A DNA stretch of 6,075 bases from Candidatus Desantisiibacteriota bacterium (GTDB lineage: Bacteria > JACRDZ01): the NCBI GenBank assembly GCA_016209155.1, contig JACQWU010000294.1, positions 1 to 6,075 of the forward strand, written 5' to 3'. Under the pieces are notes generated by a model. The model was not told where the DNA came from. It searched no databases and saw nothing but the letters and a program-made list of their open reading frames with translations. The translations under genes were made by a program, and so were the position numbers. Below, in pieces: positions 549 to 5,500 of the stretch (position 1 is the first letter of the stretch; each line of letters begins with the position of its first letter).

Positions 549-642
549 ATTAACACTGATTATTTATTCTGTCAAGCTTAATTAATACTGATTATTAATA
601 ATTAGTTTAATGATATTAACACTGATTATTAATTCTGTCAAG
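549..642. repeat. Direct repeats in the rsfS leader region
   Basis: A 28-bp unit occurs at 549-576 and again at 615-642 with one mismatch (T565 versus A631). It starts ATTAACACTGATTATT and ends ATTCTGTCAAG. A partial copy at 581-599 (ATTAATACTGATTATTAAT) sits between them, so starts are spaced 32 and 34 bases apart, about three helical turns. The middle copy also overlaps a perfect palindrome, ATTATTAATAAT at 591-602. The repeats lie downstream of the predicted transcription start and upstream of the rsfS ribosome binding site. Possible roles are regulator binding sites or simply a small tandem duplication. No protein-coding signal explains them. Confidence 0.65.
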
Positions 643-684: not shown

Positions 685-1005
685 TTGTTTTCTAAACAAA
701 TTGCAAATCTGAGTCTTAATTTATGTGAAGAAAAAAAAGGAGAAGATGTTAAAATTATTAGTATGAAAAAAAATAGTCTGACAGATTATTTTGTTATCTG
801 TACAGCAAACTCAGATGTACATGCAAGGGCGATTGCTGAAGAGATAGAAAAGGAGTTTAAGAAAAAAGATATAGAATTATTACATAGGGATGGATATAGT
901 GACGGGCACTGGATTTTACTGGATTATTTTGATGTAATGATCCATATCTTCACAAGGGAAACCAGAGATTTTTATGCACTTGAAAAATTATGGCAGGATG
1001 ATTAA
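685..1005 (+). CDS. rsfS: Ribosomal silencing factor RsfS (Iojap/DUF143 family)
   Basis: A 106-residue protein that covers the family's usual length. RsfS binds ribosomal protein uL14 on the 50S subunit and blocks subunit joining, slowing translation when nutrients are scarce. Family signatures are clear: the N-terminal helix (IANLSLNLCEEKKGEDVKII, 6-25), SLTDYFVICTANSDVHARAI (31-50), the RDGYSDGHWILLDYFDVMIH block (68-87), and the closing RDFYALEKLW (94-103). I chose the TTG at 685 because AGGAG precedes it and the homologous domain begins there. Extending to the ATG at 610 would add 25 residues encoded by repeat DNA with no family match. It is the first gene after the consensus promoter. 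In many bacteria rsfS sits beside nadD; here the next gene is an exported propeller protein starting two bases after the stop. No key residue appears to be missing. Confidence 0.93.
   Translation: MFSKQIANLSLNLCEEKKGEDVKIISMKKNSLTDYFVICTANSDVHARAIAEEIEKEFKKKDIELLHRDGYSDGHWILLDYFDVMIHIFTRETRDFYALEKLWQDD
995..998 (+). promoter_or_regulatory. Ribosome binding site for the signal-peptide frame at 1008
   Basis: AGGA inside the last codons of rsfS lies nine bases before ATG 1008. It supports initiation at 1008, coupled to rsfS translation, rather than at ATG 1072, which has no good upstream site. Confidence 0.55.
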
Positions 1006-1007
1006 GC

Positions 1008-1085
1008 ATGAAAATGCGTATTTATTATATATTGATAAGCTTGTTAATATTTTTTTTGGTAAATAATATTTATGCAAGGAAGTAA
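1008..1085 (+). CDS. Signal-peptide reading frame, out of frame with the downstream propeller gene
   Basis: This 25-codon frame encodes a textbook Sec signal peptide: a short basic start (MKMR), a hydrophobic core (IYYILISLLIFFLV), and a polar end NNIYA with an A at the expected signal peptidase I site (residue 23), then RK and a TAA stop. It starts two bases after rsfS and has AGGA nine bases upstream. The large propeller protein continues in the frame one base further on, beginning GSKEWDIP within a few codons of the signal cleavage point. The two frames are both open between about 1063 and 1082. Removing one base there would give a normal exported protein such as ...NNIYA-RSKEWDIP. I therefore read this as the true 5' end of the next gene, separated by a frameshift, a sequencing error or recoding, rather than an independent peptide gene. 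Confidence 0.7.
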   Translation: MKMRIYYILISLLIFFLVNNIYARK

Positions 1086-4000
1086 GGAGTGGGATATCCC
1101 AATAAAAAGTCGAATAAAATGTGTCCCTGCAATCGCTGACGGGAAAATTTTTTTCGGCTCATGGGACGGGACTTTATTTGTTTTGAATACTTTGTCCGGA
1201 AGCGAAATATGGAAAACAAAAGCTAAAAAAGCAATTTATTCATCTCCTTTATTTCATCAAGAAAGATTATATTACAGTTCCTGGGATGGATATCTTTATG
1301 CGGCGCAGGCAAAAAGCGGTAAAACATTATGGAAATTTAAAGCAAAGGATGCAATAAGTATAACACCTGTTATATATGATAATATAATTTTTGCCGGTTC
1401 ATTAGACGGATATGTTTATGCAGTTGATACACGTGATGGGACTGAGTTATGGAAAATTGAAACCGGCTGGGCCGGCACTCATTTTCCGCCTGTTATTGAT
1501 AAAAAAACCAATCTCATTTTCATAGCCAATAATAACAGTAATATTTATGCTTTGGAACCATTCACAGGTAAAGTAAAATGGAAGTTTGCCACACAATGGT
1601 CTGGAATATATACGGATATGGTTTTAATAGAAAACATGCTTTTTGTTCCTTCTTTTGACGGGACACTTTATTGTCTGGAAGCAAAAAACGGTAAATTGAT
1701 CTGGAGTCTCCCTCTCGGAAAATTTTTTCTTGCCAATCCTCCGTCCCAGGATGAAAAACTTTTTCTTGCAACTGAACATGGGGAGCTTGCGGCAGTAAAC
1801 ATTTATAATGGAAATATTTTATGGCGCTATAAAATAGCCGAACGTATATATAAAAAGCCTCAACTTTTTGAAGATGCGCTTTTTCTTGCTTCAGATCAGG
1901 GATATCTTTACGGGGTTGATATTTTATTCGGTGAAGTAATATTTCAATATATAATAGATTATTATTCTGATTATTTTATACATTATGATTATAATTCAGA
2001 AATGTTTTATTTTTTTAATGGTGAGGACAAATTGCTTAGTTTTGGTAAAGTAAAAGAAAAGGAAGAGCTTGATGTGAAAGAAACTTACATTGCTAAAAGA
2101 GAATTTATTAAACCTCCAAATTTTTCTCCGGATGGAAAATATATTCTTTATAACAATTATCAGATAAAAAGCGATAATAATTTATATCGTGCGCATTTTA
2201 CAGATAACAATACTTTAAGTGTTGTTAAGCTGACGCAATCAGGGGCAGATGATATTTTTCCTATGTGGTGTCCTGATTCAACCGCTATTGTATTTTCTTC
2301 AAATAGAGACGGAAATTATAATTTATATAAAATGTATATGACGAATCTGGATATTTATTATTTTGATGATAAAAATATAGCAGAATGTAACAGATCTGAG
2401 AAGGATACTTTATCAGATTTAAATAATTATACTGTCGAGGATATGGAAAAAAAGTATAATAACCAGCTTACAAATGAGAGAGGAGATGACTTTTTCCCTG
2501 TTCCATCTCCGGATGGTTCAAAAATTTTATATAGTTCAAATATAAATGGAAATTGGGATTTGTTTGTAATGGATTCCAGCGGACAGAATAAAACAAGGCT
2601 TACCTTTGATCCTGCAGATGAAGAATATGCATCGTGGAGTCCTGACGGGAAAAAAATAATTTTTACCTCATCACGGATAAAGGATAAGGATGTTTATATG
2701 ATAGACTGTAATGTAAATAATCTTATGCAGGTAACTCATGATGAAGTTGATGAAATACATCCAAAATGGATTGGGGACAGCTCAATAGTTTATGAAAAAA
2801 TGTCAATAGATAAGAGATATTCCAATATCTGGATAACACAGGAAAACGGGGAAAATGGGAAAGCGCTTACGGAAGGGAAATTCAGAGATGCTTATCCCAT
2901 ACCTTCACCTGACGGTAAAAAAATCGCTTTTATCAGCAATCGCAAAGATGACAGAGATAATATCTGGAGTACTAATATTTCAAGTAACGGACTTATTCAA
3001 ATAACAAATTATGCAGATGAAGTTAATCCTCCCTCATGGTCCTTTGACAATAAAAAAATTATTTTTTTTGTGAAGGATTCTTTAACCGGTAACAGAGAAA
3101 TCAAGACAGTAGATATTAATCAGTTTTCTTTACTGGAATTCTTTAAACAAGCGGAAAATTTTCTTTATAAGGGGGAATATGAAGAGGCACGGAATATATA
3201 TCAGAATATAATCGAAAACTATCCGGATTATAAAGTAATGGTTCTTGTTGAACCTGCACATTTTAATTTATCATCACACCTGTCTGCTTTATATAAAATG
3301 TCTGTAATCGAAGAGAGAAGGAACAATATTGATAATATGACAAAATTAAGAAAAACAATTGCAGAAGATAAAAGCGGTGACGGGGATGAACAAAAAAAGT
3401 TCTCTCTAATAACCAGTGTGAAAATAAAAATAGCCGAACAGTTAGCTAAGAAAGAAAAATATATTGAAGCTATTGATAGTTATACAGATATTTTAAAAGA
3501 TTATAAAGAAATGAAAGATGAATTCGGGTATCCTGTTGCTCCTTATATTATGATTCGTATGGCGGAGTGTTATGAAAAAACAAGTGAATATGAGCATGCA
3601 ATAGATTTGTACATAAAAGCTCAGGAAGAGTATCCGGATGAGTATATTATGATTAATAAAGATTATATCGGAACAATGGCACATAGTTTTGTTATGGCTG
3701 CAAAAATTTATGAAAAGCAGTTCAAAAACTATGATAAAGCTTTAGAGTATTACCTGAAAATTTTAGAAAAGCATTCTGATGATAAATATACTAATAAGAT
3801 TGCGGTACTTAAAGCCGCATATATTGAAAAAGCTTTAATTAATATCCGCAGAATTTACAGCCGTCAAAAAATAGATACTGATAAATGGTTTAAACTTTGT
3901 AAAAACACATATGGGGTTATAAAAAATGAAAGATTGAAAAAGAGTTTTGAAAATATTATTAATGATCTTGAAAGATTAAAAAATGGTGAAAGTTTAATGC

Positions 4001-4839
4001 AGGAAAAAGATCAGGTGTCAAAAGTAGTATTCTGTTCACGAAAAAAGGAAGGTGATTTGTCGGAAAATAATTTTGAAATATATTCAATGACTGAAAATGG
4101 CACTGATACAAAAAGGCTGACTTACAACGATGCAAATGATTATCGTCCTAACTGGTCTCCGGGCGGAGATAAGATAGTTTATCATACACTGTTTGAAAGT
4201 AATTATGAGATTTTTGTTATGGATAATGATGGTGCAAATCAAATGAATCTTACTAACAACGCAGCCTATGATTTTGAACCTGCATGGAATTCTGATGGAA
4301 CACGAATTTCTTTTACCACTGACAGGGATAAGAATATGGAAATATATGTTATGAATGAGGATGGAAGTGACCCGATAAATATAAGCAGTCATCCGGCGCG
4401 TGATTTTGAATCCAACTGGTCACCTTTTGGAGATAAAATAGTTTTTACAACGGACAGGGACGGTAATTTAGAGGTATATCAAATAGATATCGCAAATGGT
4501 ACAATTGAAAATTTATCTAAAAGCAGAGCTGACGACCACGAACCTGTTTTTTCACCTGATGGATTAAAAATTATTTTTACTTCTAATCGCGATGGCAATG
4601 AGGAAATTTATATTATGAATAATGATGGTAGAGAGCAATATAATATTTCAAAAAATGATTCTTTTGATTATAATCCAACCTGGTCAAAGGACGGCCAATA
4701 CATTTTTTTCGTTTCAAATCGTCATGGAACACCAAAAATATTCAGAATGAGATCTGATGGAACAGGCATTGTGCAGTTGACCGGTGATGCAGAAAGCTAT
4801 GATATTCAACCTAATGTGACAAAAGGGATACAGTTCTGA
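1072..4839 (+). CDS. Large PQQ-propeller / TolB-propeller / TPR / TolB-propeller protein, probably exported
   Basis: The open frame gives 1255 residues. Residues ~1-330 form a PQQ-type beta-propeller: seven blades start near 24, 64, 104, 147, 188, 228 and 268, with the pattern 'G.LYA.D..sG...W', and a possible eighth is near 310. Residues ~350-682 hold about seven TolB/PD40-type blades (SPDGKKI.F.SNRDGN..IY.M). Residues ~687-903 contain at least four TPR-like units (for example FLYKGEYEEARNIYQNIIEN and TSEYEHAIDLYIKAQEEYP), then more helix to ~982. Residues 983-1255 form a second TolB-like propeller of six blades with a strict 44-residue period. Such domains bind proteins or ligands; no catalytic residues are evident, so it is probably a scaffold or envelope interaction protein. 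Only one end is uncertain: ATG 1072 lacks a ribosome binding site, and a signal peptide lies just upstream in another frame (1008-1085), so the native protein probably begins at 1008 through a frame change. It is not TolB itself: far larger, with no tol/pal neighbours. Confidence 0.85.
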   Translation: MQGSKEWDIPIKSRIKCVPAIADGKIFFGSWDGTLFVLNTLSGSEIWKTKAKKAIYSSPLFHQERLYYSSWDGYLYAAQAKSGKTLWKFKAKDAISITPVIYDNIIFAGSLDGYVYAVDTRDGTELWKIETGWAGTHFPPVIDKKTNLIFIANNNSNIYALEPFTGKVKWKFATQWSGIYTDMVLIENMLFVPSFDGTLYCLEAKNGKLIWSLPLGKFFLANPPSQDEKLFLATEHGELAAVNIYNGNILWRYKIAERIYKKPQLFEDALFLASDQGYLYGVDILFGEVIFQYIIDYYSDYFIHYDYNSEMFYFFNGEDKLLSFGKVKEKEELDVKETYIAKREFIKPPNFSPDGKYILYNNYQIKSDNNLYRAHFTDNNTLSVVKLTQSGADDIFPMWCPDSTAIVFSSNRDGNYNLYKMYMTNLDIYYFDDKNIAECNRSEKDTLSDLNNYTVEDMEKKYNNQLTNERGDDFFPVPSPDGSKILYSSNINGNWDLFVMDSSGQNKTRLTFDPADEEYASWSPDGKKIIFTSSRIKDKDVYMIDCNVNNLMQVTHDEVDEIHPKWIGDSSIVYEKMSIDKRYSNIWITQENGENGKALTEGKFRDAYPIPSPDGKKIAFISNRKDDRDNIWSTNISSNGLIQITNYADEVNPPSWSFDNKKIIFFVKDSLTGNREIKTVDINQFSLLEFFKQAENFLYKGEYEEARNIYQNIIENYPDYKVMVLVEPAHFNLSSHLSALYKMSVIEERRNNIDNMTKLRKTIAEDKSGDGDEQKKFSLITSVKIKIAEQLAKKEKYIEAIDSYTDILKDYKEMKDEFGYPVAPYIMIRMAECYEKTSEYEHAIDLYIKAQEEYPDEYIMINKDYIGTMAHSFVMAAKIYEKQFKNYDKALEYYLKILEKHSDDKYTNKIAVLKAAYIEKALINIRRIYSRQKIDTDKWFKLCKNTYGVIKNERLKKSFENIINDLERLKNGESLMQEKDQVSKVVFCSRKKEGDLSENNFEIYSMTENGTDTKRLTYNDANDYRPNWSPGGDKIVYHTLFESNYEIFVMDNDGANQMNLTNNAAYDFEPAWNSDGTRISFTTDRDKNMEIYVMNEDGSDPINISSHPARDFESNWSPFGDKIVFTTDRDGNLEVYQIDIANGTIENLSKSRADDHEPVFSPDGLKIIFTSNRDGNEEIYIMNNDGREQYNISKNDSFDYNPTWSKDGQYIFFVSNRHGTPKIFRMRSDGTGIVQLTGDAESYDIQPNVTKGIQF

Positions 4840-4874: not shown

Positions 4875-4901
4875 CGTAATTTGCGATATAAATGAATTAC
4901 G
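4875..4901 (+). promoter_or_regulatory. Possible small hairpin before the cytochrome gene
   Basis: CGTAATT (4875-4881) and AATTACG (4895-4901) are perfect 7-bp complements with a 13-base loop. The last base touches the GGAG ribosome binding site (4901-4904) of the cytochrome gene, so the stem could modestly affect its translation. It is AT-rich, has no following T-run, and may be coincidental. Confidence 0.25.
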
Positions 4902-4904
4902 GAG
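4901..4904 (+). promoter_or_regulatory. Ribosome binding site fixing the cytochrome start
   Basis: GGAG lies eight bases before ATG 4913. The in-frame ATG at 4892 has no such site and would only add seven residues ahead of the signal peptide. Confidence 0.65.
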
Positions 4905-4912
4905 ATTTTCAG

Positions 4913-5500
4913 ATGAAAGCTATAAAAGTATATATTTTTTTAATAATTTTAGCAGTATTTATGGTTATAAGCGGCATAAATGCCCAGGAATGTAAATGTC
5001 ATAGTAAAAATTCCTCTATGCGGCGAATGCATGAAATAATTGGTTTTAAAAATTGCGGCAATTGTCACAATAAAAATGAAAAGTTAATGAGTTCAAAACC
5101 CAAAAAACAAAACGATCAGAAAAATCAGGAAAAGCTTAAAAATCGTATTAAAGAAGATAAATTTTGTATCCCATGTCATAATCCGGATGGAACAGCTAAA
5201 AAAGAAATTTACAAAAATTCCGATGCCATGAAAATAATTAATACTTTTTACTGCCCAAAAGACAAATTAAGGTTTATTGACAATATTAATGTTTGTCCAA
5301 AATGCGGTGGAAAGTTAATAGATATTAACCTCCTTATGGAAGAATCCAAAAAAAATCCATCTAATGATATATGCCGGCAATGTCATATCAATACTGAAGT
5401 GGAAAACCTTGATTCCCATATTACTTTTAAAAAAGATAAATTGTATAATTGTTTAGAATGTCATAGCGGACATGATGATTGCGGAGGCTGTCATTTTTAA
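4913..5500 (+). CDS. Exported multihaem c-type cytochrome (five CXXCH) with a zinc-ribbon-like insert
   Basis: A 195-residue protein counted from ATG 4913. A Sec signal peptide (MKAIK, a hydrophobic core, then SGINA, residues 1-24) sends it to the periplasm. Five canonical haem c motifs follow: CGNCH 48-52, CIPCH 85-89, CRQCH 154-158, CLECH 180-184 and CGGCH 190-194, the last ending one residue before the C-terminus. A CKCH at 27-30, right after the cleavage site, is one residue short of a normal motif and may be a degenerate haem site or metal site. Other histidines (H40, H169, H187) could be sixth ligands. Between haems 2 and 3, residues 112-137 have CP, then 12 residues, then CPKCGGKL. This is the spacing of the heavy-metal-binding (HMBD) ribbon found in copper/silver efflux proteins, but the usual Met-His after the first CP is replaced. 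A Lys/Gln/Asn-rich linker fills 60-83. The expected role is electron transfer; the partner and pathway are unknown. It begins 73 bases after the propeller gene and ends 18 bases before cobQ. Confidence 0.88.
   Translation: MKAIKVYIFLIILAVFMVISGINAQECKCHSKNSSMRRMHEIIGFKNCGNCHNKNEKLMSSKPKKQNDQKNQEKLKNRIKEDKFCIPCHNPDGTAKKEIYKNSDAMKIINTFYCPKDKLRFIDNINVCPKCGGKLIDINLLMEESKKNPSNDICRQCHINTEVENLDSHITFKKDKLYNCLECHSGHDDCGGCHF

What the first reader, a model, noticed from the sequence alone, without database searches (positions are those of the whole stretch)
1008..1092. Signal peptide and propeller protein are in different frames: frameshifted, mis-sequenced or recoded gene
ATG 1008 has a ribosome binding site and encodes a complete Sec signal peptide ending NNIYA, then RK and TAA at 1083-1085. 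The 1255-residue propeller protein is open in the frame one base on, from 1063, and has no ribosome binding site at ATG 1072. One base removed between about 1063 and 1082 would join them at the expected cleavage point. As written, the protein either lacks export or needs a frame change. AAG TAA G resembles no known strong +1 slippery site because tRNA-Lys would re-pair poorly, so an indel seems more likely than programmed recoding. A phase-variable switch is possible but no long repeat tract lies in the required interval; the T8 run at 1050-1057 lies upstream of the frame-1 stop at 1060 and cannot fix it alone.
Basis: partly seen in the sequence, partly recalled or inferred. Interest (0 to 1): 0.6.

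Follow-up and report, generated by a model that had tools for sequence, protein, structure and literature searches.

The report
Accidental frame break in exported propeller gene
A gene for an exported, propeller-shaped bacterial protein is split in this sequence, with its export signal one reading frame off from the rest, most likely through an assembly error or a chance mutation rather than a deliberate frame switch, so it is probably ordinary.

Summary
A 25-codon ORF at 1008-1085 encodes a convincing Sec signal peptide. A 1255-residue ORF (1072-4839, open from 1063) in the +1 frame encodes a BamB-like/TolB-like propeller protein with no signal peptide and no Shine-Dalgarno site. The pairing is unlikely to be chance: it is the only such case among 481 long ORFs checked, and shuffled sequence gives about 0.6%. 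The domain begins right where the signal ends, so this is best read as one exported protein whose frame is broken in this sequence.

Recoding has almost no support: the only interval where a shift could work (1063-1082) has no slippery motif, correctly placed SD, notable RNA fold or homopolymer. The assembly (352 contigs, 79% complete, N gaps) carries other broken genes: 14 candidate frame breaks in 298 kb, against 2 in 286 kb of two relatives; three are confirmed by Pfam.

Consensus error and real strain mutation could not be separated: no reads and no close relative are held, and the only near paralogue (49% identical) is cut off by its contig end. Translational coupling, giving a cytosolic protein, remains a minor rival.

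The parts
685..1005 (+). rsfS (ribosome silencing factor), TTG start with AGGAG at 673-677; gene just upstream
   Evidence: PF02410 E=1.8e-33; TIGR00090; start codon is my reading of the sequence
1008..1085 (+). short ORF encoding a Sec-type signal peptide ending NNIYA, then RK and TAA
   Evidence: sequence; passes a crude Sec test, 0.6% by chance
1063..1082 (+). only interval in which a change of frame joins the signal peptide to the propeller ORF
   Evidence: stops at 1060-1062 (downstream frame) and 1083-1085 (upstream frame)
1050..1057 (+). T8 run inside the signal-peptide ORF; cannot by itself join the frames
   Evidence: sequence
1072..4839 (+). 1255-aa ORF: BamB-like PQQ propeller, TolB-like PD40 repeats, TPR segment, second set of PD40 repeats; no signal peptide in its own frame
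   Evidence: Pfam and NCBIfam; predicted fold of the N-terminal domain matches BamB

Best explanation
Bases 1008-4839 are one gene for an exported multi-propeller/TPR protein. The natural product is a signal peptide followed at once by an N-terminal BamB-like propeller. In this consensus the gene carries a small indel (net one base, modulo three) at the junction 1063-1082, so the export signal and the body lie in different frames. The cause is accidental: most likely an assembly or consensus error in a fragmented metagenome assembly (about 0.55), less likely a real frame-breaking mutation in the sampled strain (about 0.2). Shown: the two ORFs, the required interval, the domain content, the absence of known recoding motifs, and other broken genes in the same assembly. 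Inferred: that the two ORFs were one gene, and that the break is not real biology.
For: A signal-peptide ORF in the wrong frame is unique among 481 long ORFs and 0.6% by chance. Several single-frame propeller homologues in the same genome and phylum carry in-frame hydrophobic leaders. The propeller begins right at the junction: the predicted model has an eighth blade with only three strands from residues 302-326, so the N-terminal stretch EWDIPI is the likely closing strand and only a few linker residues stand before it; Foldseek matches BamB at E about 1e-21. ATG 1072 lacks an SD in a genome where SD matches of 5 nt or more are common at first ATGs (51 of 123) and rare at internal ATGs (5 of 127). 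A frameshift-aware HMM finds 14 in-gene frame changes in 298 kb of this genome versus 2 in 286 kb of G001+G003, and at a stricter penalty 3 versus 0. Split between two frames by Pfam: a polysaccharide-synthesis epimerase (L045), a DegT aminotransferase (L106) and a LytS-type kinase (L075). L069 holds an exact 28-nt tandem duplication between two Nnr domains. The assembly contains N gaps.
Against: No reads were available, so the error is not shown. The interval 1063-1082 holds no homopolymer longer than TTT, unlike the breaks in L075 and L103, which sit at or near A7, T8 and A8 runs. The 1255-codon ORF is otherwise intact, which an old pseudogene would not be. Some of the 14 HMM calls look like ordinary gene overlaps, and the two calls in relatives were not checked. 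No relative shows the two ORFs fused.
Confidence: 0.75

Rival explanations
1. Two genuine ORFs: the short signal-like ORF is a separate leader or small membrane peptide, and ribosomes ending at 1085 restart at ATG 1072, 11 bases back (translational coupling), giving a propeller protein without a signal peptide.
For: ATG 1072 lies within 14 bases of the upstream stop. Coupled starts may have weak ribosome-binding sites, as Antonov et al. note (PMC3711429).
Against: Several propeller homologues in this genome and phylum carry an in-frame leader, and BamB/TolB-type propellers are envelope proteins by established knowledge. A signal-like leader out of frame is unique among 481 ORFs.
Confidence: 0.15
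2. Programmed +1 ribosomal frameshifting at the end of the signal peptide controls how much exported protein is made.
For: The upstream frame ends in a stop codon near an SD-like stretch (AAGGA 1076-1080), and the shift direction is the one used in prfB.
Against: The prfB motif has an SD-like sequence three bases before CTTT and a weak TGAC stop (PMC12421855). Here the codon before the stop is AAG, the stop is TAAG, and the SD-like stretch abuts it. The longer SD match TAAGGAG (1083-1089) lies downstream and has no ATG, GTG or TTG in frame at a usable distance after it. RNA folding is unremarkable (z=-1.25). No second example was found.
Confidence: 0.04
3. Phase-variable switch by slippage in a repeat tract.
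For: A T8 run at 1050-1057 lies inside the signal ORF, and two other genes here have breaks near A7/A8/T8 runs (L075, L103).
Against: A length change at T8 alone leads to stop 1060 or 1064, and no repeat tract lies in 1063-1082.
Confidence: 0.02

Closest known systems
Singleton frame-transition genes of Antonov et al. 2013 (PMC3711429)
   Same: Two overlapping ORFs that look like one gene with a frame change, without a conserved cluster; the authors attribute non-orphan singletons chiefly to sequencing errors or indels.
   Different: Here the upstream ORF is only a signal peptide, so homology across the junction cannot be tested.
BamB (outer membrane assembly factor, eight-bladed PQQ-like propeller)
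   Same: Predicted fold of residues 1-336 matches BamB structures; PF13360 hit.
   Different: Fails the BamB equivalog cut-off (135.6 vs 285.2 bits). Here it is one domain of a longer protein with TolB-like and TPR parts, and the leader has no lipobox cysteine.
prfB +1 programmed frameshift
   Same: Stop in the first frame early in the gene; +1 direction.
   Different: No CTTT slippery sequence, no correctly placed SD, and TAAG instead of TGAC.

Membership tests
Programmed +1 frameshift (prfB type) | Slippery CTTT directly at the stop | tested here: not met
   AGG AAG TAA G at 1077-1086; motif from PMC12421855
Programmed +1 frameshift (prfB type) | SD-like sequence three bases upstream of the slippery sequence | tested here: not met
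   AAGGA at 1076-1080 overlaps the codon before the stop
Programmed +1 frameshift (prfB type) | Conservation of the frame change among homologues | not testable with these tools
   Only genome of its genus held; paralogue cut off before the N-terminus
Phase-variable gene | Repeat tract whose length change restores the frame | tested here: not met
   None in 1063-1082; T8 upstream leads to stops
Exported propeller protein (Sec substrate) | N-terminal signal peptide in frame with the propeller | tested here: not met
   Signal peptide is in the other frame as printed
BamB | Reaches the family cut-off TIGR03300 | tested here: not met
   135.6 vs 285.2 bits
TolB | Reaches the family cut-off TIGR02800 | tested here: not met
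   303.8 vs 343.15 bits

The most novel reading that the evidence does not exclude
An unrecognised +1 recoding event at the end of a signal peptide decides whether a large envelope propeller protein is exported or not made.
Probability: 0.03. Interest if true: 0.7.

Novelty: not a real feature. Interest (0 to 1): 0.12.

Why it matters
If it is an accident, it matters only for annotation: gene callers will start the protein at 1072 and miss its export signal, and other genes of this assembly deserve the same caution. If the frame change were real and conserved, it would be a new way of controlling export, but nothing found here points that way.

Tried and rejected
Relatives: the genus holds one genome, and the phylum only three others, in different families, with only 20-40% identical repeat-domain matches and no orthologue. 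Genome-contig scans gave no orthologue. An exact pattern in viral contigs gave nothing, and phages only distant TolB-like repeats. The missing 5' end of the C135 paralogue was not found at any other contig. Synteny after rsfS is not conserved in the relatives. The loose frameshift HMM (penalty 12) was uninformative, with broadly similar rates in all genomes (41 per 299 kb, 28 per 186 kb, 7 per 102 kb), so stricter penalties were used. Loss of a longer stretch between signal and propeller, as in L045 and L106, was considered: many homologues carry 20-30 extra residues there, but the predicted fold does not require them, so this stays open.

Full report
What is there. The window is contig C244 of a 3.08-Mb, 352-contig genome (78.8% complete). 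It holds an HTH regulator on the minus strand (18-392), rsfS (685-1005), the short ORF in question (1008-1085), the 1255-aa propeller ORF (1072-4839), a gene with many CxxCH-like motifs (start at 4892 or 4913, to 5500) and the start of cobQ (5519-). The short ORF reads MKMRIYYILISLLIFFLVNNIYARK and stop: charged start, hydrophobic core and a plausible cleavage after IYA. The long ORF, in the +1 frame, cannot start before 1063 and its only early start codon is ATG 1072, which lacks an SD.

Is it more than chance? I applied one crude signal-peptide rule to every ORF of at least 150 aa in about 650 kb from three related genomes. Of 481 such ORFs, 126 have a signal-like start in their own frame. 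Only the window has a signal-like ORF in another frame overlapping its start, apart from one call that reads like a translated tRNA gene. In shuffled versions of bases 986-1085 such an ORF appears in 0.6%. The local coding model does not separate the frames well over 1008-1082, which is short and AT-rich, and clearly favours the 1072 frame after 1086.

What the protein is. Pfam and NCBIfam find an N-terminal PQQ/BamB-like propeller, PD40/TolB-like repeats, TPRs and a second block of PD40 repeats; it falls below the BamB and TolB equivalog cut-offs. AlphaFold2 without an alignment gives a model with mean pLDDT 78 for residues 1-336, in which the eighth blade has only three strands from the C-terminal side. 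The N-terminal stretch EWDIPI, right behind the junction, is then the likely closing strand (inference; pLDDT is low there). Foldseek matches BamB structures at E about 1e-21. So the mature domain begins directly where the signal ends. Several homologues in this genome and phylum have an in-frame hydrophobic leader before the same kind of domain. Together this makes one exported protein by far the simplest reading.

Can it be a programmed event? The only interval in which a shift can work is 1063-1082. It contains no repeat tract and no homopolymer over three bases. The T8 run upstream cannot help, since either shift meets a stop at 1060 or 1064. The prfB motif has CTTT at a TGAC stop and an SD-like sequence three bases upstream (PMC12421855). 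Here the stop is TAAG, the codon before it is AAG and the AAGGA stretch abuts it. A strong SD match, TAAGGAG at 1083-1089, lies at and behind the stop but has no ATG, GTG or TTG in frame at a usable distance. RNA folding of 1060-1180 is unremarkable (z=-1.25).

Is the assembly prone to such breaks? A frameshift-aware gene model trained on each genome gave 14 in-gene frame changes in 298 kb here, and one each in 185 kb and 101 kb of two relatives; at a stricter penalty, 3 against 0. Several of the 14 look like ordinary gene overlaps. Three were confirmed by domains split across frames: L045 (profile positions 1-82 and 126-292 of PF02719), L106 (4-111 and 147-359 of PF01041) and L075 (histidine kinase cut at an A7 run). 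L069 has an exact 28-nt tandem duplication, and L103 two breaks near T8 and A8. The assembly also has N gaps. Antonov et al. (PMC3711429) regard frame transitions without a conserved cluster as mostly sequencing error or indel. Breaks of this kind are therefore expected here.

What I could not decide. No reads are held. The genus has one genome. The nearest paralogue, 49% identical over its length, starts at residue 25 because its contig begins there. Other relatives are too distant, and the locus is not syntenic. So consensus error, real strain mutation and, less likely, translational coupling cannot be separated by computation here. The verdict is an ordinary broken reading frame, and the interest is low.

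Noticed in passing
window 549-633: Three 19-bp direct repeats (ATTAAYACTGATTATTAAT and near copies at 549, 581, 615; spacing 32 and 34 bases) lie between the divergent HTH regulator gene (18-392, minus) and rsfS. They look like an operator array for that regulator.
   Followed up: no
L050 2277; L051 minus strand 2146 and 3706; L145 (genome G002): In G002, a relative in the same phylum, three otherwise intact genes hold four in-frame TAA codons where the protein family would fit glutamate (for example TKG*FLAIAGPSGSGKTT in an ABC ATPase). Each is one G-to-T change from GAA. 1 of 24 ABC domains in G002 but none of 120 in the three other genomes has a stop. Damage or sequencing error, mutation, or local recoding of TAA are all open.
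   Followed up: partly
L103 1775-3812: A NACHT/HEAT-repeat gene with two frame breaks near a T8 and an A8 run; possible homopolymer error or slippage.
   Followed up: partly
window 4892-5500: Putative secreted multihaem cytochrome with many CxxCH-like motifs and no Pfam match; only a weak OmcA/MtrC-type hit.
   Followed up: no
L041 1-3762 (G000:C135): A second gene of the same propeller/TPR architecture, 49% identical, in the same genome, with an N gap inside and its 5' end cut off by the contig end.
   Followed up: yes
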